In this document: positions 31,325 to 56,075 of the stretch, one piece after another
Numbering within the stretch: the stretch's first letter is position 1
How the letters are laid out: each line of letters opens with the position of its first letter
From: an uncultured Alphaproteobacteria bacterium
GTDB taxonomy: Bacteria > Pseudomonadota > Alphaproteobacteria > Rs-D84
DNA: 64,000 bases
Reading direction: 5' to 3'
Assembly: GCA_949878575.1 (NCBI GenBank)
Contig: CATLAX010000002.1
Span: forward strand, 129,378 to 193,377
Position numbers and translations under genes: made by a program
Notes under the pieces: generated by a model
The model's input: only the letters and a program-made list of their open reading frames with translations
The model's database searches: none
What the model was told of the DNA's origin: nothing

Positions 31325-32095
31325 ATGAAAAAGACACCTTTTATAATTGCAATACTGTGTTCGGTATGTGCAAATACCGCATCCGCCGCATACAGCGACC
31401 GCCAGTTTAAATCAGAGGTTACGCGCGGTCTTGACATAATAGGGGCGCACGCCAACGTAAATATCATAGAAGACGCGGCCCCCGGCGAACTGGGGCTGGA
31501 GGTATATCAGACCGTAAACGCCGTTGATACAAACGATTTAAAACTGTTTGTTCCGACATCAATGTATGTTCGCGCCGGTGCGGGTTTAAATCTGGGCTTT
31601 GCCACGGACAAGGCGAAATTTGCCGGCAAAGAATACGAAAGCAGCGGCAGCTGGACCACCCAAATCGGCCTGGGATGGAATCTGTCATCGTACGTTCGCA
31701 CAGAAATTGATTTCCAGGAATCAACATTTGAATTTTCAGATTTAAAAAAGCGCCAGGCAACGTATCAGACACTGGGCGGCATGCTGTATTTTGATTTGGC
31801 ACGCCGATATGTTCAAACCGGCGACATCACGCGCCGCCGCGTATTTGTACCGTTTATCGGTGTGGGTGCGGGATTCGGCCACTATGAATTTGAAGGCACC
31901 GGCGGTGCAGACGGCTTTGTAATTGCCGCGCCTCGCGCCCAGGTTGGATTTAACCTGGCGCTGACGGACTTAATCGGCATAGACGTCGCGTACCAGTATC
32001 AGATGATGATAGGCAACGGATTCGGCTGGGACGTGCGTGCCGGCGGCGTTGACAACATCAGCAATGTAATGGCGTCTTTCCGTGTGAATTTTTAA
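31325..32095 (+). CDS. Outer-membrane beta-barrel protein A
   Basis: 256 residues. Signal peptide MKKTPFIIAILCSVCANTASA followed by alternating hydrophobic strands (YVRAGAGLNLGFATDKAKF, RTEIDFQESTFEF, PFIGVGAGFGHYEFEG) and a C-terminal strand ending SFRVNF, the terminal-Phe signal recognised by the BAM complex. Probably an 8-stranded OmpA/Opa-like porin or adhesin. The downstream gene encodes a related barrel, 19 bp away, so they likely form an operon. Confidence 0.8.
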   Translation: MKKTPFIIAILCSVCANTASAAYSDRQFKSEVTRGLDIIGAHANVNIIEDAAPGELGLEVYQTVNAVDTNDLKLFVPTSMYVRAGAGLNLGFATDKAKFAGKEYESSGSWTTQIGLGWNLSSYVRTEIDFQESTFEFSDLKKRQATYQTLGGMLYFDLARRYVQTGDITRRRVFVPFIGVGAGFGHYEFEGTGGADGFVIAAPRAQVGFNLALTDLIGIDVAYQYQMMIGNGFGWDVRAGGVDNISNVMASFRVNF

Positions 32096-32114
32096 GCTGG
32101 GGGAAAATTAAATC

Positions 32115-32768
32115 ATGAAAACAAAATACTTAATCGCAACCGCTGTATGTTTAATGCCAACCATCGCGTGTGCCGCAATACCATACCGCGCCCAGCAGAA
32201 CCGCATGCCGGCGGCATCCGCACCCGATGGCCGTGATGCAGAGGCACTGGCCCGCATGCATCGCTTTTACGTGGGTGGAATGTATGATTTTTCCATGTGG
32301 CAAAGCCGCACGGATAAAAACGACATTCATGCGTCCGGCAAAAACACATCTTCTTTTGAGGCGGTCGCCGGCATCCGCGTATACGACACATTTCGTCTGG
32401 AGGCGAACTATGTCCGCACCCGCGCGAAATGGAACGGTTTTTCACTGGACGGCGACACCGGTTTTATAAACGCTATTGTTGATGCCAGAATTGACAACCT
32501 GTACCGCCTGTTTTATAAGCAGCATCTGGTACCGTACGTTGGTGTCGGCGCCGGTCTGTCATGGAACAAGGCGACCGATGCGCACATAGACGACAAAATC
32601 CGCCCCGCCCTGGCCGCGATGGCGGGTCTGGGCATTGAACTGGGCGAATATTTCACCATAGATTTGGGATACCGCTATACATACATGTTCACGCCAAAAT
32701 TTGACGTCATATCCGACCTGGCGCCGACAGCGCATCAGTTTCGGGCGGGCGCACGTGTAAATTTCTGA
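32115..32768 (+). CDS. Outer-membrane beta-barrel protein B
   Basis: 217 residues. Signal peptide ending ACA, strands such as FYVGGMYDFSMWQSR, FRLEANYVRTRAKWNGF, PYVGVGAGLSWNKA and FTIDLGYRYTYMF, and terminal Phe (GARVNF). It is a shorter paralogue of the preceding barrel, with the same order of strands. Its stop shares one base with the next start (TGATG), implying translational coupling to an RNA methyltransferase, an odd functional pairing. Confidence 0.8.
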   Translation: MKTKYLIATAVCLMPTIACAAIPYRAQQNRMPAASAPDGRDAEALARMHRFYVGGMYDFSMWQSRTDKNDIHASGKNTSSFEAVAGIRVYDTFRLEANYVRTRAKWNGFSLDGDTGFINAIVDARIDNLYRLFYKQHLVPYVGVGAGLSWNKATDAHIDDKIRPALAAMAGLGIELGEYFTIDLGYRYTYMFTPKFDVISDLAPTAHQFRAGARVNF

Positions 32769-34837: not shown

Positions 34838-34866
34838 TTGCCACAAATTTGTAATTGCTATATCAT
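34838..34866 (+). promoter_or_regulatory. Promoter of structured RNA copy A and the DGR operon
   Basis: TTGCCA at 34838-34843, 17-nt spacer, TATCAT at 34861-34866: one mismatch each from consensus. Predicted start near 34873, exactly at the first hairpin of the RNA. Confidence 0.7.
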
Positions 34867-34872
34867 TTTTTC

Positions 34873-35048
34873 TGTCGCAGGGGATTTCTGCGACCAGGCG
34901 TCGGAACCTGTATAAGAAGTGTCCGTGGTGGACAAAAAACATCTCCAACCCCAGGTTGGAGGGCGGTGAATATATTGAATAAACCCGCTATGTCTTCTTA
35001 TATAGTTTCGAACCTCCAACCACTTGCGATAGCACCAGGTGGTTTATT
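34873..35048 (+). ncRNA. Structured RNA family 1, copy A (DGR operon leader)
   Basis: Helices in order: GTCGCAG/CTGCGAC; P1 CAGG/CCTG with an 8-nt loop (34895-34910); P2 TATAAGAAG (34911-34919) with CTTCTTATA (34994-35002); P3 GTCC/GGAC; P4 CTCCAACC/GGTTGGAG (34943-34961); P5 GCGG/CCGC around the conserved TGAATATATTGAATA loop (34963-34988). The CCTCCAACC strand at 35013-35021 can also pair with GGTTGGAG and overlaps the terminator arm AACCAC, which pairs with GTGGTT at 35039-35044. The next gene starts at 35072, so a cis attenuator is likely. Confidence 0.75.
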
Positions 35049-35071
35049 TTGTAACGAATGTAGGGCAAAGT

Positions 35072-36028
35072 ATGAAGTTCGGAACATTTTTATTTCTGGC
35101 GACAATTCCCGGTATGGCCAGCGGGGCCCAAATTGTAAAATTTGGTGCAAAATTATGTGACGACGGCAATCAACTAAGCTCCGGCACATGCATGGAAAAA
35201 GAGCGCGGGGCCTGTCCCGCCGGGTATTATGTAACACCGATAAATTCCGCAACATATGCCAGCGTGACATTAAAAAATCAATGCATGAATTCTTATAACA
35301 AGACGGAATTGCCGGCAATATTTCATCCGATATACAATGGTGTGCTGATAAAATTCGGCGCAACGCTGTGCGGCGGCGGGCAACAATTAGCCGCCGGCCA
35401 GTGCCAGGACAAGGTTCAAGGCCGCTGTCCGGATGGCTTTTACAAAACCCCGATTGCCCAGTCCACGTTTTCATCACCATCGGCCCAGTTACAGGAATGC
35501 ATGAATTCATACAACCAGTATGAACTGGCGGAATATTTAAGCGCAATATACAACGGTGTTTTGGTTCCGTTCGGGGCCAAATTGTGCGGCGCGGGCCAGT
35601 ATCTGGCGGACGGCGAATGCACATCGCACGATCGCGGCGAATGCCCCGCCGGATTTTATCAGGCAACGCCCGCCGCAGATACGTTGACAACACCGGAAAT
35701 GGGGGTCTGCGCCACGGGATATTCATCATACGCGTTACGGGCGAACTGCGACGCGGGCGAGGTTTCCAACGGCCTGTGTGCGGTATTGTGTACGGGCGGC
35801 CTGCGGTATACAGGGCTGGGGACATGCGCGACATTATGTCCGTATGACGGCGGCCACTTAAAAACATCCGCCGGCGTGTCATGGCCGATGTATTCGGAAA
35901 AACTAATAACGCCGTCGTTGGGTATGCGAACCGCGGACGGGTCGTGTTACATAAACTTTTTACCGGGTGCGGGTGCGGGAATAAACATAAAATCCGCAGA
36001 CGGGAAAACATATCACATAACGGATTAA
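35072..36028 (+). CDS. Secreted cysteine-rich three-repeat protein, DGR operon
   Basis: 318 residues from the ATG at 35072 with signal peptide MKFGTFLFLATIPGMASGA. Three tandem repeats of about 75 residues follow, each opening with V/IKFGA-K/T-LC and containing a GQxLxxGxC step and CPAGYY/CPDGFY; a divergent cysteine-rich C-terminal domain ends the protein. About 25 cysteines suggest a disulfide-stabilised extracellular or surface protein. It is the first gene after structured RNA copy A, 15 bp before a second secreted protein and in one operon with the DGR target. No known family is recognised. Confidence 0.75.
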   Translation: MKFGTFLFLATIPGMASGAQIVKFGAKLCDDGNQLSSGTCMEKERGACPAGYYVTPINSATYASVTLKNQCMNSYNKTELPAIFHPIYNGVLIKFGATLCGGGQQLAAGQCQDKVQGRCPDGFYKTPIAQSTFSSPSAQLQECMNSYNQYELAEYLSAIYNGVLVPFGAKLCGAGQYLADGECTSHDRGECPAGFYQATPAADTLTTPEMGVCATGYSSYALRANCDAGEVSNGLCAVLCTGGLRYTGLGTCATLCPYDGGHLKTSAGVSWPMYSEKLITPSLGMRTADGSCYINFLPGAGAGINIKSADGKTYHITD

Positions 36029-36043
36029 CAAGAGGGAAAGCAA

Positions 36044-36526
36044 ATGAGGAAACTATCAACAGCCGTTATTTTTTCACTGTTATGCTGGCCGGGACACGCG
36101 GCGACGACGTGCCTGCATAACCGCACGGCCGTATTCATAATAAAAAAATCCGTGGATCCGGTATCGGTATCGTCAAACGCATCAGAAATGACGTTCAGCA
36201 TGACGTTGGACTATGAAACATTGCCGGGCCAGGCATCGTCAAAAACGCTGGGTGGTCTGGCCACCTGTAACGAGATAACGACCGACACGTCCGATGCGGC
36301 GGCCAAGACGGGTTCTGCAAACGTTTACCTGCGCGCCAGCAGCGCGGACGTCGGCACGCAATGCTGGTGCAGTTTAACCGGCCCGGTCACAACATGGTGG
36401 GTGTATTTAAAGGCGTTTGACAGCGAGGATGCATGCCAATCCGGGTGCGCGGCGGCGTGTGCGAACGCGGCAAAGGCAAACACGGACAATTTCCGCACGA
36501 ACGGCCTGTATCAGGCAATATGGTAA
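36044..36526 (+). CDS. Secreted non-variable paralogue of the DGR target
   Basis: 160 residues; GAGGG 8 nt before the ATG; signal peptide ending GHA. The C-terminal 60 residues (TQCWCSLTGPVTTWWVYLKA, then SEDACQSGCAAACANAAKAN) align with the corresponding part of the DGR target (CWCQMTHPLKSRW, then the variable region), so both share a fold with a conserved CWC and a C-x3-C-x3-C-like core. No similarity to the template repeat is seen at DNA level, so this copy is not diversified. It might be a partner or an invariant homologue. Confidence 0.72.
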   Translation: MRKLSTAVIFSLLCWPGHAATTCLHNRTAVFIIKKSVDPVSVSSNASEMTFSMTLDYETLPGQASSKTLGGLATCNEITTDTSDAAAKTGSANVYLRASSADVGTQCWCSLTGPVTTWWVYLKAFDSEDACQSGCAAACANAAKANTDNFRTNGLYQAIW

Positions 36527-36548
36527 AGGGTAACAAAAGGGGAAACAG

Positions 36549-37001
36549 ATGAAAAAAATATTAATGTGTTTGTGCATGTGCATGGCGTTGCGCCCGGCCG
36601 CCGCCACAACAATGTGCGCCGAAGACGACGTTGTTGCAGGCGCCCTGGACCCGATGATAAACGGTACGAATCATACGAGTAATTCTGAGATATTTGAATG
36701 GTCGGCGGTATTTCCATACGGAACGGTATGGGGTATCGCCACATGCGTGGATACATCCGGCACAACATATGGTGCCGTGGATGAACTGCGCGATTCAAAT
36801 GGTGAAATCGCCACCGGCGGGGAACGCACCGGCAGGTATTGTTGGTGTCAAATGACCCATCCGTTAAAGTCGCGTTGGTTGTTCCGGCACGCCGGCTCCT
36901 CGGTTGCCGCTTGCGGGTCCTCCTGTGCGGACCACTGCGGTCTCAACGTGCGCGACAACTCCGTTCTGCGCGCGGGCGTGTTCGGGTCGGTCGGCGATTG
37001 A
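36549..37001 (+). CDS. DGR target protein, secreted, with C-terminal variable region
   Basis: 150 residues; AAGGGG upstream; signal peptide MKKILMCLCMCMALRPAAA. An N-terminal invariant part is followed by CWCQMTHPLKSRW and then the variable region (about residues 107-149) whose codons correspond to adenine-rich positions of the template. The gene ends 6 bp after the end of TR homology, as usual for DGR targets. The template in the same frame encodes Asn-rich sequence (NCANNCGNNVRNN), so up to about a dozen residues can vary. The variable domain is cysteine-rich and does not show the classic C-type lectin pattern, so its fold is open. Likely a surface binding protein. Confidence 0.88.
   Translation: MKKILMCLCMCMALRPAAATTMCAEDDVVAGALDPMINGTNHTSNSEIFEWSAVFPYGTVWGIATCVDTSGTTYGAVDELRDSNGEIATGGERTGRYCWCQMTHPLKSRWLFRHAGSSVAACGSSCADHCGLNVRDNSVLRAGVFGSVGD
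36869..36995 (+). repeat. DGR variable region (VR)
   Basis: 127 bp aligning without gaps to 37187-37313. Fifteen mismatches; thirteen lie at template adenines (A to G, C or T) and two are G-to-T. The last 31 bp, starting CTGCGCGCGGGC, are identical and free of adenine in the template, the expected initiation-of-homology segment. Confidence 0.92.
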
Positions 37002-37020
37002 TAAATCGGTATGCGGCGCC

Positions 37021-37043
37021 GCCATGTGCCAACGGCACATGGC
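37021..37043 (+). other. Perfect hairpin downstream of VR (possible DGR cruciform)
   Basis: GCCATGTGCC and GGCACATGGC form a 10-bp perfect stem with an AAC loop, 26 bp after VR. In the Bordetella phage DGR a hairpin in this position is required for efficient retrohoming. There is no T-run, so it is not a normal terminator. Confidence 0.6.
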
Positions 37044-37186
37044 CGGAAACGGGGGGGGGTTCGGGGGCGGCGGCCCCGCCCCCGCAGGTATGCGCCGCAG
37101 GCGCCGAAATTTTTTGGAAATTCCCGGGTAAAATCGGGAATGGGGTGTGATGCCGATACGTTGACCGTCACGCTTGCATACGGCTT

Positions 37187-37313
37187 GTCGCGTTGGGTGT
37201 TCCAGAACGCCAACTCCTCGGTTGCCGATTGCAGGTCCAACTGTGCGAACAACTGCGGTAACAACGTGCGCAACAACTCCGGTCTGCGCGCGGGCGTGTT
37301 CGGGTCGGTCGGC
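37187..37313 (+). repeat. DGR template repeat (TR)
   Basis: 127 bp donor copy with 21 adenines, 13 of which differ in VR. It lies in a 580-bp gene-free interval between target and accessory gene, on the same strand as the reverse transcriptase, as in most DGRs. The RNA containing it is the template for mutagenic cDNA. Frames open across this interval are not supported as proteins. Confidence 0.92.
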
Positions 37314-37584
37314 TCCTTGGGGAATGGTAACTGTATGAATACAAGGAATTACAGTTTGGCTAACCTGCAGGACAAAGTGCATAGCGCACTTTTCAGACGT
37401 TACGTCTGTTTATTATGCCTTCCTTATCAAAGGCGGGGCATCACATCCCGGATCAATGCGGACAAAAACGCATTATCCGAACAAACAACGCAGGAAACAT
37501 CCGGGCTGGTAACCGCTTTACTTTACCCGGCGAACGTCCGGATGTTTGATTCAATTAAACACTATAACGTGGGGATATATTAAT

Positions 37585-37911
37585 ATGACAATAGACGATA
37601 TAAAAAAACTAGACCGGGACAGCTGCCCCAAATTTTCCGTCTTTGCACGCGACAAACTGCCCATGCCGGGTGATAAAAAGTTTATGAACGATATTTTAAA
37701 CCGCGAAATTACCATCACAGATTTTAGAATTTCCGGTTCAAAAAAACGAAACGGAACAGACTGTCTGCAGTTGCAGTTCTTGATGGATGACGCCGTATGT
37801 GTCGTATTTACCGGCAGCAGTGTCTTAATAGACCAGATTCAATCGTCCAAAGAAAACATACCGTTCCGAACAACCGTTGTAAAGATAGACAAATATTATT
37901 CCTTTTCATGA
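37585..37911 (+). CDS. Putative DGR accessory, ssDNA-binding-like protein
   Basis: 108 residues from the ATG at 37585. The body, KFMNDILNREITITDFRISG, then DCLQLQFLMDDAVCVVFTGS and PFRTTVVKIDKYYSF, is beta-rich and resembles small OB-fold-like proteins found in phages and beside some reverse transcriptases. It sits where the helical Avd accessory protein is found in other DGRs, yet is clearly not Avd. Its TGA overlaps the RT start (ATGA), so the two are made together. A nucleic-acid-handling role is inferred. Confidence 0.65.
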   Translation: MTIDDIKKLDRDSCPKFSVFARDKLPMPGDKKFMNDILNREITITDFRISGSKKRNGTDCLQLQFLMDDAVCVVFTGSSVLIDQIQSSKENIPFRTTVVKIDKYYSFS

Positions 37912-38933
37912 AAACCCATAAACACCTGTGGGAACAGTTTATTTCCCCGGAAAACCTGGACCTGGCCGCACGGCGCGCCGTACGCGGCAAACGCGGACGC
38001 AGATCCACGCGCCGGTTCCTGCGACATCGCGCACAGCGCTTGGAAAAACTGCGCGAAATGCTGATACGCGGCGAATTTACAACCGGAAAATACCGCATAT
38101 TTACCATATTTGAACCCAAAAAAAGAAATATTTACATGTTGCCGCTGTACCCGGATCATCTGGTGCATCACGCACTGATGAACATACTGGCCCCGATTTG
38201 GCAGAATCTGTTCATATCCGATTCATACGCATGCATTCCGGGACGCGGCCTGCACACCGCATCACAGCGGTGCGTCGCAATGCTGCGGAAAAACAGATAC
38301 GTGCTGCAATGCGACATCAGCAAATTTTACCCCAGTATAAATCACGACATCATGATGAAAATCATCCGCAGAAAAATTTCAGACCCGCGAATACTGGCAT
38401 TGCTGCACGACATTGTCTATTCAACAGAGGGCCAGCGCGGAATGCCCATCGGAAATTTAACCAGCCAGTGGATGGGAAACCTGTACATGAACGATTTGGA
38501 CATGTTCGTGAAACACAATATGCGCGTGAAAAACTATATCCGGTACTGTGACGATTTCTGCATATTTGACAACGACCGGGAAAAACTGGTGCGGTACAAA
38601 AAAATACTGCAGGAATTTTTGGCACGCGAACTGGATCTGCGCTTTTCCAAGGCCTTTATAAAGAACACGAACGAAGGCGTGAACTTCATCGGGTACAGGC
38701 ACTTTAAAAACCACGTCGTCTTAACACGGGCCGGCGCAAAAAAAATGCGCAGAAAAATACTAAACCTGGCCCGGCACCCGGAAATATCCCCAAATTCCAA
38801 ATCATGCATCGCCGCGTTTTGGGGATGGACGCGGTGGTGCTGTTGCAAAAATATGCGCCGGCGCATAAACGAAATGGTGGAACAAAACGCCCCGCCGGAA
38901 TTCGCACACTTTTTTAAAATGAATTTCAATTAA
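37908..38933 (+). CDS. DGR reverse transcriptase
   Basis: 341 residues from the ATG at 37908. The RT palm motifs are in order: LQCDISKFYPSINHDIMM (motif A, catalytic Asp), MPIGNLTSQWMGNLYMNDLD (the DGR-type GNLTSQ block, unlike the QGSPLSP of group II introns), YIRYCDDFCIF (catalytic YxDD) and NFIGYRHF. No maturase, protease or integrase domain. It copies the TR transcript with errors at adenines and directs the cDNA to VR. Coupled to the accessory gene; followed by a terminator at 38934-38957. Confidence 0.95.
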   Translation: MKTHKHLWEQFISPENLDLAARRAVRGKRGRRSTRRFLRHRAQRLEKLREMLIRGEFTTGKYRIFTIFEPKKRNIYMLPLYPDHLVHHALMNILAPIWQNLFISDSYACIPGRGLHTASQRCVAMLRKNRYVLQCDISKFYPSINHDIMMKIIRRKISDPRILALLHDIVYSTEGQRGMPIGNLTSQWMGNLYMNDLDMFVKHNMRVKNYIRYCDDFCIFDNDREKLVRYKKILQEFLARELDLRFSKAFIKNTNEGVNFIGYRHFKNHVVLTRAGAKKMRRKILNLARHPEISPNSKSCIAAFWGWTRWCCCKNMRRRINEMVEQNAPPEFAHFFKMNFN

Positions 38934-38957
38934 AAATCCCCGCCAACGCGGGGATTT
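38934..38957. terminator. Terminator after the DGR operon
   Basis: AAATCCCCGC and its complement GCGGGGATTT around CAAC, T-run on the plus strand and A-run on the other side; it also closes gapA transcription. Confidence 0.85.
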
Positions 38958-38962
38958 TTGTT

Positions 38963-48690: not shown

Positions 48691-50918
48691 TTTCCAAATT
48701 TTCCACTGCGCGGGAATCCGACCGGCACCGTGCGGCCCTGGGATGCGCGGCGGCCAACCCACGGCGCGACATCGTCCAACCGGGTCGTTCCGCGCCCCGT
48801 CGTCCAACCAAATCCGTCCGCCGCATTATAGAACATTACGTCCAGGACATATGTCCGCTCGGCATTGTATTTCTGTAAAATCACACCCTTGCCACGTGAC
48901 ATTGTCGGAATTTCCGCGGTCTGGAATATCAACAGTTTGTCATTGCTGCCCGATATTGCGATTGTGTCGCCGGTAACCGGCACGCACATAATCGCCGGAT
49001 TTTTGTCATCCGTATTCATTATCTGTTTGCCGGTGCGCGTCTGGGCCAGACAGTTTTCACCCGCAACAATAAATCCCGTGCCATGACGCCCGACCAGCAG
49101 ATATTTCGCCGCCATGTCCAGAACAAATGCGCGAACAATATCCTCGTCCGCGGCAATGTCCGCCATCATTCGCACGGATTCGCCAAACCCGCGGGCGGAC
49201 GGCAAATCACGCGCCAGCAGCGTGAACATTTTCCCGCGTGATGTAAACAGATTGATTTTATCCGTTGACATCGCATGGAACGCGGTCTGCAATTCGTCGC
49301 CTTCCTTAAACTTTAAATCCAGCGAGTTCAAATCCAGATGTCCCTTGGCCGCGCGAATCCATCCCATTGTGGACAGTATGACGGTCAAAGGCTCTTTTTC
49401 AATAAACTCTTCCGCATTTACAACAATTTCTTCGGTCTGTTCCGCCCATGTCGTGCGGCGGCGTCCCAGTACGGTCTTTTTGTCATACGCCTTTTTAATA
49501 TCGGCGAACCAGGCCTTTATCTGGGCGTTTTGCAAATCCTCTGACCCCATTAAAGCCATCAGCTGTTCCTGTTCGGCGCGCAGTGCGGCGTCTTCGCGGC
49601 GAATTTCCATTTCTTCCAGTTTGCGCAACGCACGCAGACGGGTGTTCAAAATCGCCTCTACCTGAACCTCTGTTAACTTAAATTCTGCAATCAACGCAGC
49701 CTTGGCGTCATCTTCTGTCCGGATGATTTCAATCACCCTGTCCAGATTCAAATAAACTATTAACAACCCGTCCAGAATTTCCAACCGCCGCGCAATATTG
49801 CCCAGCCGCCATGCGGTACGCCGGCGCAGAACATTTTTCTGGTGCGCGATAAATTCACGCAGCACGTCGCCAATACCCATTACACGCGGCGCGCCGTTTG
49901 AATCAATAACGTTGAAATTCATATTGAACCGCGATTCCAAATCAGTCATCGCAAACAGATGCGCCATCATTTTATCCAGCGGCACATTACGGCTTTTGGG
50001 TGTGATGACAATGCGCACATCCGTTGTGGATTCATCCGTAATGTCATCCACCAGCGGCAGTTTTTTCGCATCAATCAGCGCGGCAATCTGTTCAACCAGT
50101 TTGGATTTCACAATTCCGTACGGAATTTCCGTAATCACCGCCTGTTGCGCGCCGCGTTCCAGTTCCTCTATATTCCAGCGCGCACGCACGCGAAACGCGC
50201 CGCGGCCCGTTTCATAATTCTTTACAATGGTGTCAAAATTATCAATCAGCACACCGCCTGTCGGGAAATCCGGCCCGACCATTTTTTTCATAATCTGCGC
50301 TGTTGTGGCATCGGGCCTGTCCACCACCAGGGTTAATGCATCGCACACCTCTGCCACGTTGTGGGTCGGAATATTTGTCGCCATACCGACCGCAATGCCC
50401 ATTCCGCCGTTGGCCAGCAAATTCGGAAACGCCCCCGGCATGACGGTCGGTTCAACGGTTGTGCCGTCAAAATTCGGCATCATGTCAACGCTGTCTTCGT
50501 CCAGGCCGTCCATAATCATCATGGCGGCATCCGTCATTTTGGATTCCGTATAACGGTACGCCGCCTGGGGGTCGCCGTCAATATTGCCAAAATTACCCTG
50601 GCCGTCTATTAATGGATAACGCACGGAAAAATCCTGGGCCAGGCGAACCATTGCGTCATACACGGAACTGTCGCCGTGGGGGTGATAATGACCCAAAACG
50701 TCACCGACAACGGTCGCACATTTGCGAAATGCGGCCGCAGGCGACAATTTCTGGCGCAGCATGGAATACAGTATGCGGCGATGCACGGGTTTTAAACCGT
50801 CGCGTACATCGGGCAACGCACGTGAAACAATCGTGCTGACCGCATAGGACAAATAACGTTCCGACAGGGCGTCCGCCAGCTGTTGTGAATCAATATTTTC
50901 AATAATTTTGTTACTCAT
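48687..50918 (-). CDS. parC: DNA topoisomerase IV subunit A
   Basis: 743 residues from the ATG at 50918, giving [20 protein letters not shown]. Winged-helix region [19 protein letters not shown], catalytic tyrosine in AAYRYTESK near 120, tower domain with ATNIPTHNV, long coiled coil, and C-terminal beta-pinwheel. Absence of the GyrA box (QRRGGKG) favours ParC over GyrA. It passes DNA duplexes to decatenate daughter chromosomes with ParE, which is not in the window. A structured RNA cluster lies head to head with its start. Confidence 0.93.
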
Positions 50919-51000
50919 GATGTATGAAAATCTAGAACATTTGAAAAAAAATAACAACAGTTTTTTATTGTCCCAACAACAGTATTATATAATAATGTAT

Positions 51001-51090
51001 TCGGTTGGAGGCCCGTGAATATATTGAATAGTCGGGTCAATTATACGATTGTGATTAACCTCCAACCACCATGTTTATTACGTTTTTTAT
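51001..51090 (+). ncRNA. Structured RNA family 1, copy B (minimal)
   Basis: Only the core is kept: GGTTGGAGG (51003-51011) pairs with CCTCCAACC (51059-51067), enclosing P5 CCCG/CGGG (51012-51036) around the conserved TGAATATATTGAATA loop. A TATAAT box at 50988-50993 lies just upstream, but no clear -35. The P1 and P4 5' strands and the terminator hairpin are missing, though a T-run follows. Confidence 0.55.
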
Positions 51091-51119
51091 TTTACATTCT
51101 GCATTTTATAATATATAAT
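51091..51119 (+). promoter_or_regulatory. Promoter of structured RNA copy C
   Basis: TTTACA at 51091-51096, 17-nt spacer, perfect TATAAT at 51114-51119. Confidence 0.75.
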
Positions 51120-51125
51120 TCGTTT

Positions 51126-51296
51126 GTGGCAGTGTAAATACTACCATGGGGTTTCATATCCCCCAATCTAGCGCCTGAGTGGGCGAAACCACTCCAACAG
51201 TCATGTTGGAGGGTGGTGAATATATTGAATAAGCCACACTATGCTAGATTGTAGTTATGAACCTCCAACCACTTTTATAGTGGTTTTTATTTTTGA
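51126..51296 (+). ncRNA. Structured RNA family 1, copy C
   Basis: P1 GGGG/CCCC with loop TTTCATAT (51148-51163); P2 AATCTAGC (51165-51172) with GCTAGATT (51243-51250); P4 CTCCAAC/GTTGGAG (51192-51211); P5 GTGG/CCAC around TGAATATATTGAATA (51213-51237); competing CCTCCAACC at 51262-51270; terminator AACCAC/GTGGTT (51267-51285) followed by TTTATTTTT. It ends before copy D rather than a gene, so it may also act as a free sRNA. Confidence 0.75.
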
Positions 51297-51297
51297 T

Positions 51298-51326
51298 TTT
51301 ATACTTTTTTATGTTAAACTTATAAA
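51298..51326 (+). promoter_or_regulatory. Promoter of structured RNA copy D
   Basis: TTTATA, 17-nt spacer and TATAAA; weaker than the other copies. Confidence 0.5.
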
Positions 51327-51328
51327 TA

Positions 51329-51510
51329 GCATCAGAATTTTCTGATGCCGGAGTGTCATAACTCCTGAATCTAGCGTCCTTCACAAGGATGAACAAATCT
51401 CCAGCCTGCCTGGTTGGAGGGCCCGTAAATATGTTGAATAGCGGCACTATACTAGATTATAGTTATGAACCTCCAACCACTTGAAATAATTCCAGTGGTT
51501 TTTGTTTTTT
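51329..51510 (+). ncRNA. Structured RNA family 1, copy D
   Basis: 5' hairpin GCATCAGAA/TTCTGATGC; P1 GGAG/CTCC with loop TGTCATAA (51350-51365); P2 AATCTAG/CTAGATT (51368-51374 with 51452-51458); P4 CTCCAGCC/GGTTGGAG with one G-U pair (51399-51419); P5 CCG/CGG around TAAATATGTTGAATA (51423-51444); competing CCTCCAACC (51470-51478); terminator AACCAC/GTGGTT with a long T-run. The next gene begins at 51530. Confidence 0.75.
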
Positions 51511-55916: not shown

Positions 55917-56075
55917 TAAAAAACTTACCGCCCGTGACGAATGGGCGGTTGGAGGTTCAAGACTACTAAAAGATAGTGCTGTTTATTCATATATATCACA
56001 GCCCTCCAACCGGTTGTGGAGTTATTAAAACTTTTAGGAGGCCTTGACACCTCACACCGGGGGTCACCCGATGCA
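55917..56075 (-). ncRNA. Structured RNA family 1, copy E
   Basis: Minus-strand copy. P1 GAGG/CCTC with loop TGTCAAGG (56053-56038); P2 CTAAAAG (56037-56031) with CTTTTAG (55972-55966); GGTTGGAGG (56011-56003) with CCTCCAACC (55955-55947); P5 GCTG/CAGC (56002-55978); terminator arms ACCGCCC/GGGCGGT (55949-55927) and T-run. P3 is missing. The terminator arms differ from copies A, C and D but still pair, supporting selection on structure. The XRE gene begins 23 nt later. Confidence 0.75.

What the first reader, a model, noticed from the sequence alone, without database searches (positions are those of the whole stretch)
34838..38957. Complete diversity-generating retroelement in a bacterial chromosome
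Target gene with a 127-bp variable region, template repeat, accessory gene and DGR-type reverse transcriptase in order on one strand. VR (36869-36995) and TR (37187-37313) align without gaps; 13 of 15 mismatches are at template adenines, and 13 of 21 template adenines differ, the DGR fingerprint. The RT has GNLTSQ and YCDD. The target has a signal peptide and no phage structural genes are adjacent, so a cell-surface binder may be diversified.
Basis: partly seen in the sequence, partly recalled or inferred. Interest (0 to 1): 0.93.

Follow-up and report, generated by a model that had tools for sequence, protein, structure and literature searches.

The report
Retroelement that randomises a helix face
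A bacterium with a genome of about one million bases carries a complete diversity-generating retroelement whose reverse transcriptase likely rewrites, at template adenines, one face of a predicted helix in a predicted secreted protein, a predicted display surface unlike the lectin fold that such elements are known for.

Summary
It is a chromosomal diversity-generating retroelement (DGR); 40 of 49 related reverse-transcriptase loci (this one included) show an adenine-biased repeat pair. Database relatives that are near-identical outside the VR differ mostly at template-adenine codons (66/108, against 19/252 other VR codons and 10/783 outside), so the class looks active; activity of this very copy is not shown. 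(2) The accessory protein is a predicted OB fold and does not match Avd. (3) RNA with covarying hairpins follows the TR. (4) In six relatives the template also matches target-domain copies on other contigs. The domain is nearly confined, as far as searched, to one family of roughly 1 Mb alphaproteobacteria (112 of 142 genomes; outside the genus only 2 weak matches in a 385-genome class sample). An unnamed structured RNA, 25 copies in this genome, leads the operon.

The parts
34893..35045 (+). structured leader RNA of the operon (about 150 nt, multibranch, then a terminator-like hairpin to about 35056); family not found in Rfam
   Evidence: RNA fold z -4.33, 1 of 200 shuffles folds as well; 19 of 37 predicted pairs with compensatory changes in 10 sequences; model R1 finds it here at 155 bits and 25 times in the genome; no Rfam family at gathering score, only weak sub-threshold hits
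35072..36028 (+). Cys-rich predicted secreted protein, first gene of the operon, function unknown
   Evidence: tblastn matches in 10 of 48 related loci; no Pfam family over cut-off
36044..36526 (+). paralog of the target with the same CWC...C...C...C domain but no VR
   Evidence: 24% identity to the target, E 6.7e-8; tblastn matches in 9 of 48 related loci
36549..37001 (+). DGR target protein, 150 aa, signal-peptide-like start; five strands then two helices in the model
   Evidence: translation; AlphaFold2 mean pLDDT 88.4, 92-98 in the ten-residue blocks from 31 to 140
36869..36995 (+). variable region (VR), residues 107-149 of the target; last 31 nt (36965-36995) identical to TR
37021..37043 (+). 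perfect hairpin starting 25 nt after the VR (10-bp stem, 3-nt loop), like the stem-loop downstream of the BPP-1 target site
   Evidence: in close relatives (L046-L048, L050, L086) a hairpin of different sequence at the same offset
37187..37313 (+). template repeat (TR), 21 adenines in 12 codons, none of which can mutate to a stop
37314..37470 (+). conserved spacer RNA downstream of the TR with two covarying hairpins; likely recruits the RT and primes cDNA synthesis (inferred)
   Evidence: alignment A4 of 21 loci; 92.6% of cells paired, 6 of 13 pairs with double changes, covariation score reached by 0 of 500 shuffles
37585..37911 (+). accessory protein, 108 aa, predicted OB fold; overlaps the RT start (ATGA)
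   Evidence: homologs in 41 of 49 RT loci, in 37 of them upstream of the RT on its strand; AlphaFold2 pLDDT 91; best VIA matches are OB folds and SSB/PriB
37908..38933 (+). DGR-type reverse transcriptase, 341 aa
   Evidence: matches in 45 of 142 genomes of the family at E <= 2e-39, this one included
38931..38960 (+). terminator-like hairpin (ATCCCCGC...GCGGGGAT then T run) closing the operon
   Evidence: read directly

Best explanation
This is a complete chromosomal diversity-generating retroelement whose reverse transcriptase would copy the 127-base template with errors at adenines and likely paste the copies into the end of the target gene, randomising one face of a predicted helix in a predicted secreted protein. 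Shown: the anatomy, the adenine fingerprint here and in relatives, VR-centred divergence between near-identical target proteins of related bacteria, and the covarying RNA after the TR. Predicted: the target folds into five strands followed by a helix (residues 119-136); the window's template adenines fall in codons 121, 123, 125, 128, 129, 132, 133 and 136 of that helix and in 113, 114, 116 and 137 beside it; over the family their mean direction is 156 degrees from that of the adenine-free helix residues and 106 degrees from that of Cys 122, 126 and 130. Inferred: those cysteines pair with Cys 66, 98 and 100 of the sheet and staple the helix, so that up to about 1.8e12 protein variants could be displayed without unfolding. 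Inferred: the TR transcript with its 3' hairpins recruits RT and the OB-fold accessory, which would hold RNA or cDNA in place of Avd; retrohoming is helped by the hairpin after the VR. Inferred: the exported proteins serve as binders with changing specificity.
For: TR/VR statistics. RT family. Adenine-biased pairs in 40 of 49 loci; control bases C/G/T 0/3/0 of 49 against 29 for A in the narrower scan. Activity in relatives: 9 protein pairs sharing no member, with at most 3 of 87 differences outside the VR, differ at 66 of 108 template-adenine codons, 19 of 252 other VR codons and 10 of 783 outside codons. Fold: pLDDT 92-98 in the blocks from 31 to 140; helix-face test p = 0.0008 over residues 119-136; over 54 aligned sequences C100, W110, C122, C130 and R141 are invariant and C66, C98 and C126 at least 90% conserved; 1 of 370 adenine-bearing template codons can give a stop. 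Accessory: 41 of 49 loci, OB-fold-like. Downstream RNA covariation and VR hairpin. Same neighbour (GAPDH) after the RT in 5 close relatives.
Against: Two of 15 mismatches are at template G, while most pairs in relatives have none, so this copy may have been quiet for some time. The nearest database relative (P0001) differs at only two VR residues, one an adenine-site change (N133D) and one not (V139G). The scan that found the relatives' pairs favours adenine mismatches by construction. The adenine pattern fits a 4-residue repeat (90 degrees) slightly better than an ideal helix (100 degrees), and over the wider stretch 117-137 the helix test gives only p = 0.01; all the TRs are homologous, so this is one observation. 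The cysteines themselves are 106 degrees, not opposite, from the adenine side. VR hairpins are not universal (18 of 42 VRs, and 10 of 42 TRs, have a perfect stem of 7 or more within 70 nt). In one search the number of pair types does not exceed the shuffles (355 of 500 reach it). Export, display and ligand are untested. The relatives are metagenome assemblies where named, in which a VR may be a consensus of variants.
Confidence: 0.85

Rival explanations
1. The element is a true DGR but inactive in this strain: the VR is a frozen variant.
For: Two non-adenine mismatches; P0001, the closest relative, differs at two VR residues only; no further VR in the genome.
Against: RT, accessory and TR are open or intact and the VR hairpin is perfect; the spacer RNA keeps the family's pairs; one of the two differences from P0001 is at a template adenine; sister lineages look active.
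Confidence: 0.25
2. The variable domain is a divergent C-type lectin and the helical model is wrong.
For: A survey of over 30,000 DGRs reports that annotated VR regions were systematically lectin folds and expects uncharacterised ones to be so too (PMC8144416; Results parts 1 and 2 of 3 seen). The Foldseek PDB search could not be run.
Against: pLDDT 92-98 in the blocks from 31 to 140 with an order opposite to the lectin fold described in PMC6328139 (passages): all strands first, chain ending in helices. The adenine spacing fits a helix side independently of the model. Best match to any solved chain by sequence profile is E 0.027, judged chance.
Confidence: 0.07
3. The diversified protein is an antigen or phage receptor whose variation mainly evades recognition, rather than a binder that searches for ligands.
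For: Predicted export and one-side variation fit either role; two predicted outer-membrane barrel genes lie nearby, one of them under its Pfam cut-off.
Against: AAC is the main mutable codon (236 of 370), which a 2026 study links to residues useful for antigen recognition (PMC12875486, abstract and passages); two of nine scanned targets carry collagen-like or Listeria-Bacteroides repeats. None of this is decisive.
Confidence: 0.3
4. VR and TR are an ordinary tandem duplication that drifted.
For: None beyond the duplication itself.
Against: p = 1e-10 for the adenine bias, adenine-biased pairs in 40 of 49 loci, control bases nearly negative.
Confidence: 0.01

Closest known systems
Bordetella phage BPP-1 DGR (mtd, avd, TR, brt)
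   Same: Template-adenine mutagenesis, RT with YxDD, stem-loop after the target site, structured spacer RNA 3' of the TR (BPP-1 features from PMC12875486 passages); the GxxxSQ motif of its RT and its C-terminal VR are recalled or from PMC10743442 passages
   Different: Host chromosome, not phage; accessory lies between TR and RT and is a predicted OB fold with no bAvd profile match; target is not a lectin fold on its model
C-type lectin DGR variable proteins (Mtd, TvpA, AvpA, TaqVP)
   Same: Variable residues on one surface (predicted here), invariant 3' end of the VR, AAC as main mutable codon
   Different: Those carry the VR in a lectin fold, with its invariant end on the last strand or a surface hairpin (PMC6328139 passages; PMC10743442 passages); here the VR covers one strand and two helices in the model
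DGRs with remote targets (mentioned in PMC8144416, Results part 1)
   Same: One template matching several separate target genes, seen here in six relatives
   Different: In the window's own genome only the cis target matches
Single-stranded DNA-binding OB folds (SSB, PriB)
   Different: No sequence similarity to a solved chain (best E 0.55); nucleic-acid binding untested

Membership tests
Diversity-generating retroelement | RT of the DGR lineage with GxxxSQ and YxDD motifs (motifs recalled) | tested here: met
   GNLTSQ and YCDD read; PHROG 1423 E 7.6e-105; RTs of 159 phage records matched below 60% identity, five Bordetella records among them
Diversity-generating retroelement | TR/VR pair with mismatches confined mainly to template adenines | tested here: met
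   13 of 15 mismatches at A, p 9.8e-11
Diversity-generating retroelement | VR at the C-terminus of a target ORF with an invariant 3' end and a hairpin downstream | tested here: met
   One codon separates the VR from the stop codon; last 31 nt identical to TR; hairpin 37021-37043. Over all 42 pairs 18 VRs, and also 10 TRs, had a perfect stem of 7 or more within 70 nt, so the hairpin is not universal nor exclusive
Diversity-generating retroelement | Accessory gene beside TR and RT | tested here: met
   Here at 37585-37911; homolog in 41 of 49 loci, 37 of them directly upstream on the RT strand
Diversity-generating retroelement | Retrohoming demonstrated with TR unchanged | not testable with these tools
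   No strain reads; indirect support from protein pairs of relatives
C-type lectin DGR variable protein | Topology: termini pair as strands, two helices precede the sheet, VR runs to the C-terminal strand | tested here: not met
   Model: strands 41-45, 50-55, 58-67, 97-104, 110-115, then helices 119-136 and 138-146 against the description; a prediction, not a structure
C-type lectin DGR variable protein | Structural match to solved lectin-fold variable proteins | tested here: inconclusive
Avd accessory family | Match to the bAvd profile | tested here: not met
   Pfam-A scan of the accessory: no bAvd match at E <= 1
Avd accessory family | Helical bundle (recalled) | tested here: not met
   Model is mainly beta with OB-fold order of strands; a prediction
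Prophage-borne DGR | Phage genes adjacent | tested here: not met
   10 flanking ORFs scanned are cellular; one search found no relative in viral contigs (a search for close relatives), though more distant phage RTs exist, best 43%

The most novel reading that the evidence does not exclude
A clade-wide class of cellular DGR that does not use the lectin fold: one face of a disulfide-stapled helix is the randomised surface, an OB-fold partner takes the place of Avd, a conserved hairpin RNA follows the template, and one template writes into several members of a dispersed family of exported proteins, giving bacteria with genomes near 1 Mb an antibody-like repertoire.
Probability: 0.65. Interest if true: 0.87.

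Novelty: new variant of a known kind. Interest (0 to 1): 0.76.

Why it matters
Lectin folds have been taken as the scaffold for massive DGR variation: a survey of over 30,000 elements found annotated VR regions systematically tied to them (PMC8144416). A helix-face scaffold with its own cysteine core would show that evolution solved the same problem in a second way, and would offer a small new display scaffold (about 110 residues, nearly stop-proof codons). An OB-fold accessory would make the role of the partner protein, and how cDNA is held or delivered, directly testable against Avd systems. Reduced genomes that keep such machinery and a multigene target family point to strong selection for variable exported proteins in this group of alphaproteobacteria, several of whose named members come from animal guts.

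Tried and rejected

Rows dropped or chosen: 5 of 49 rows (P0021, P0033, P0045, P0047, P0048) were left out for gaps, frame changes or lost cysteines; adenine codons there are those of the window's TR, an approximation for relatives; two of the nine pairs differ at only one or two VR residues. In one search, 16 of 42 pairs were not anchored (wrong frame picked by the script, cut contigs or other target types); the anchor itself required the three cysteines, so their presence in all 26 is no finding; two of the 26 (L057, L062) are shifted by one residue before Cys 122. In one search the 38 pairs leave out the window, L045 and L066, and two TRs (L055, L070) are counted twice among the 26 used for codons; L080's pair is only 48 nt and doubtful. 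In one search, 2 of 37 copies had no TR and one (L136) is the cis copy, leaving 34, picked by me from the listed domain matches. Nine of 49 loci had no adenine-biased pair, several of them cut by contig ends. The shuffle p of 0.000 printed for rows without a hairpin is an artefact and was not used.
Full report
What is in the sequence. VR 36869-36995 and TR 37187-37313 align without gaps over 127 nt; 15 positions differ, 13 at template A, and 13 of the 21 template adenines differ (hypergeometric p 9.8e-11). The VR ends one codon before the stop codon of a 150-aa ORF (36549-37001). Downstream come the TR, a 108-aa ORF (37585-37911) and a 341-aa reverse transcriptase (37908-38933) whose start overlaps the stop of the ORF before it. 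A search of the whole genome, 945,057 bases in two contigs and 94.6% complete, with the TR finds one TR and one VR.

It is a DGR, and a cellular one. The RT matches RVT_1 and a phage RT family. In 142 genomes of the same family, 50 have an RT match at E <= 0.001, of which 45 (this one included) are at E <= 2e-39. I read 48 regions around RT hits of 46 genomes plus one archaeal locus (L045); a scan for ungapped repeats that tolerates adenine mismatches found a pair in 40 of these 49 loci. Over 38 pairs that met its thresholds (the window, L045 and L066 left out), mismatches fall on 499 of 972 template adenines and 20 of 3915 other bases. The scan is biased by design, so I repeated it, narrower and on one strand, privileging each base in turn: A 29, C 0, G 3, T 0 of 49 loci; by their counts two of the G hits are the same adenine pairs read from the VR side. 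The ten flanking ORFs scanned are cellular: an MCRA-family protein, two predicted outer-membrane barrels (one under its cut-off), a tRNA methyltransferase, a META-domain protein, GAPDH, an IPP transferase, an APH-family protein, PriA and a T2SSE ATPase. In 5 close relatives (L046, L048, L049, L050, L086) GAPDH follows the RT as it does here; in L047 the neighbourhood is rearranged. Nine of the ten named relatives are metagenome-assembled Alphaproteobacteria, Rickettsiales or proteobacterium records, from goat rumen and sheep rectum among others; the tenth is the archaeal contig. One source names an accessory homolog from Candidatus Enterousia merdequi.

Is it active? In sister lineages, likely, judged from proteins. 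Among the target and its 48 database homologs, after dropping 5 rows, 49 pairs of proteins differ at no more than 3 of 87 positions outside the VR. Nine pairs that share no member differ at 66 of 108 template-adenine codons, 19 of 252 other VR codons and 10 of 783 outside codons (Fisher p 2e-26 for the first two); two of the nine, the window's own among them, differ at only one or two VR residues. For the window's species the only near relative, P0001, differs at two VR residues: N133D, a template-adenine site, and V139G, where the window and not P0001 departs from the TR. Two non-adenine mismatches in the window VR suggest it has not been fully overwritten recently.

One template, several genes in relatives. 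The target domain is a multigene family: 112 of 142 genomes of the family have it, with up to 27 matches in one genome, the scoring limit of that search, and many of these genomes had no RT match. In a sample of 385 genomes of the class only 5 match, three of them the same genus and two weak. I fetched dispersed copies from genomes with a known TR: 8 of 34 copies, in 6 of 13 genomes and on contigs other than the RT's, match the TR with 7-18 adenine mismatches and at most 2 others, for example 15/24 adenines and 0/96 other bases in L099 of G071. A whole-genome search with the TR of G071 lists 9 matches, the TR itself and eight others from 90% down to 73-74% identity, which reads as live targets and older decayed ones. 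In the window's genome there is only the cis target, plus an undiversified paralog next to it and one further domain match on contig C1 that does not align to the TR (L138). Nine whole targets of relatives were scanned: one carries collagen repeats (L081, 9.8e-16) and one a Listeria-Bacteroides repeat after its VR (L055, 1e-6); the rest had nothing over cut-off.

An unexpected RNA. The operon starts with a strongly folded leader (z -4.33) that has relatives in front of related genes in other loci, shows compensatory changes in 19 of 37 predicted pairs of 10 sequences and ends in a terminator-like hairpin. A covariance model finds 25 copies in this genome and at least one in 58 of 60 genomes of the family, up to 49. 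It is not in Rfam at gathering thresholds. It is not specific to the DGR: ORFs downstream of twelve copies looked at are varied.

How it most likely works. The operon transcript carries the TR and its 3' hairpins; RT, probably with the OB-fold partner, makes cDNA with errors opposite adenines; the cDNA replaces the VR, anchored by the identical 31 nt at its 3' end and helped by the hairpin. The exported protein then presents a different helix face. All these steps are inferred from known DGRs. Against this stand the quiet look of the window's own VR and the lack of any structure or binding data.

Verdict. Real, complete and non-phage; ordinary in kind, new in scaffold and accessory as far as predictions and the searches made can tell. 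I would file it as a DGR, not as a lectin-type variable protein and not as an Avd system.

Noticed in passing
34893-35045, 50917-51502 (three tandem copies, +), 55925-56055 (-), and 20 more places in the genome: A dispersed ~150-nt structured RNA with a terminator-like tail, absent from Rfam at threshold, 25 copies in a 945-kb genome and found in 58 of 60 family genomes. Function unknown; downstream genes vary.
   Followed up: partly
L099, L101 (G071), L112 (G119), L114 and L116 (G072), L131 (G095), L134 (G050), L135 (G093): Copies of the target domain on other contigs match the same genome's TR with almost only adenine mismatches, so one template likely serves several dispersed genes.
   Followed up: partly
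112 of 142 genomes of the family: The CWC/three-cysteine-helix domain is a multigene family even in genomes without an RT match, up to 27 matches (the scoring limit) in a genome near 1 Mb.
   Followed up: partly
L073, L076, L084, L088, L090, L091, L092: RT loci of the same bacterial family with adenine-biased TR/VR pairs but targets that do not match the domain profile, so at least one other DGR type exists in the group.
   Followed up: no
P0019, P0035, P0040 (database proteins): Target proteins whose VR runs on into sequence like that found after the TR, as if VR and TR had fused by deletion or assembly collapse.
   Followed up: no
L086 (G089) and L089 (G036): RT matches in two relatives are broken (two pieces in different frames; a fragment with a stop), suggesting decay of the element in some lineages or assembly errors.
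   Followed up: no
36044-36526: Undiversified paralog of the target directly upstream of it, kept next to the target in several relatives; a possible constant partner.
   Followed up: partly
L045:8001-9026: A 32% identical RT in a groundwater Aenigmatarchaeota contig with a small adenine-biased repeat pair.
   Followed up: no
31325-32768: Two neighbouring predicted outer-membrane beta-barrel genes a few kilobases upstream, kept near the element in L047, L048 and L050.
   Followed up: no
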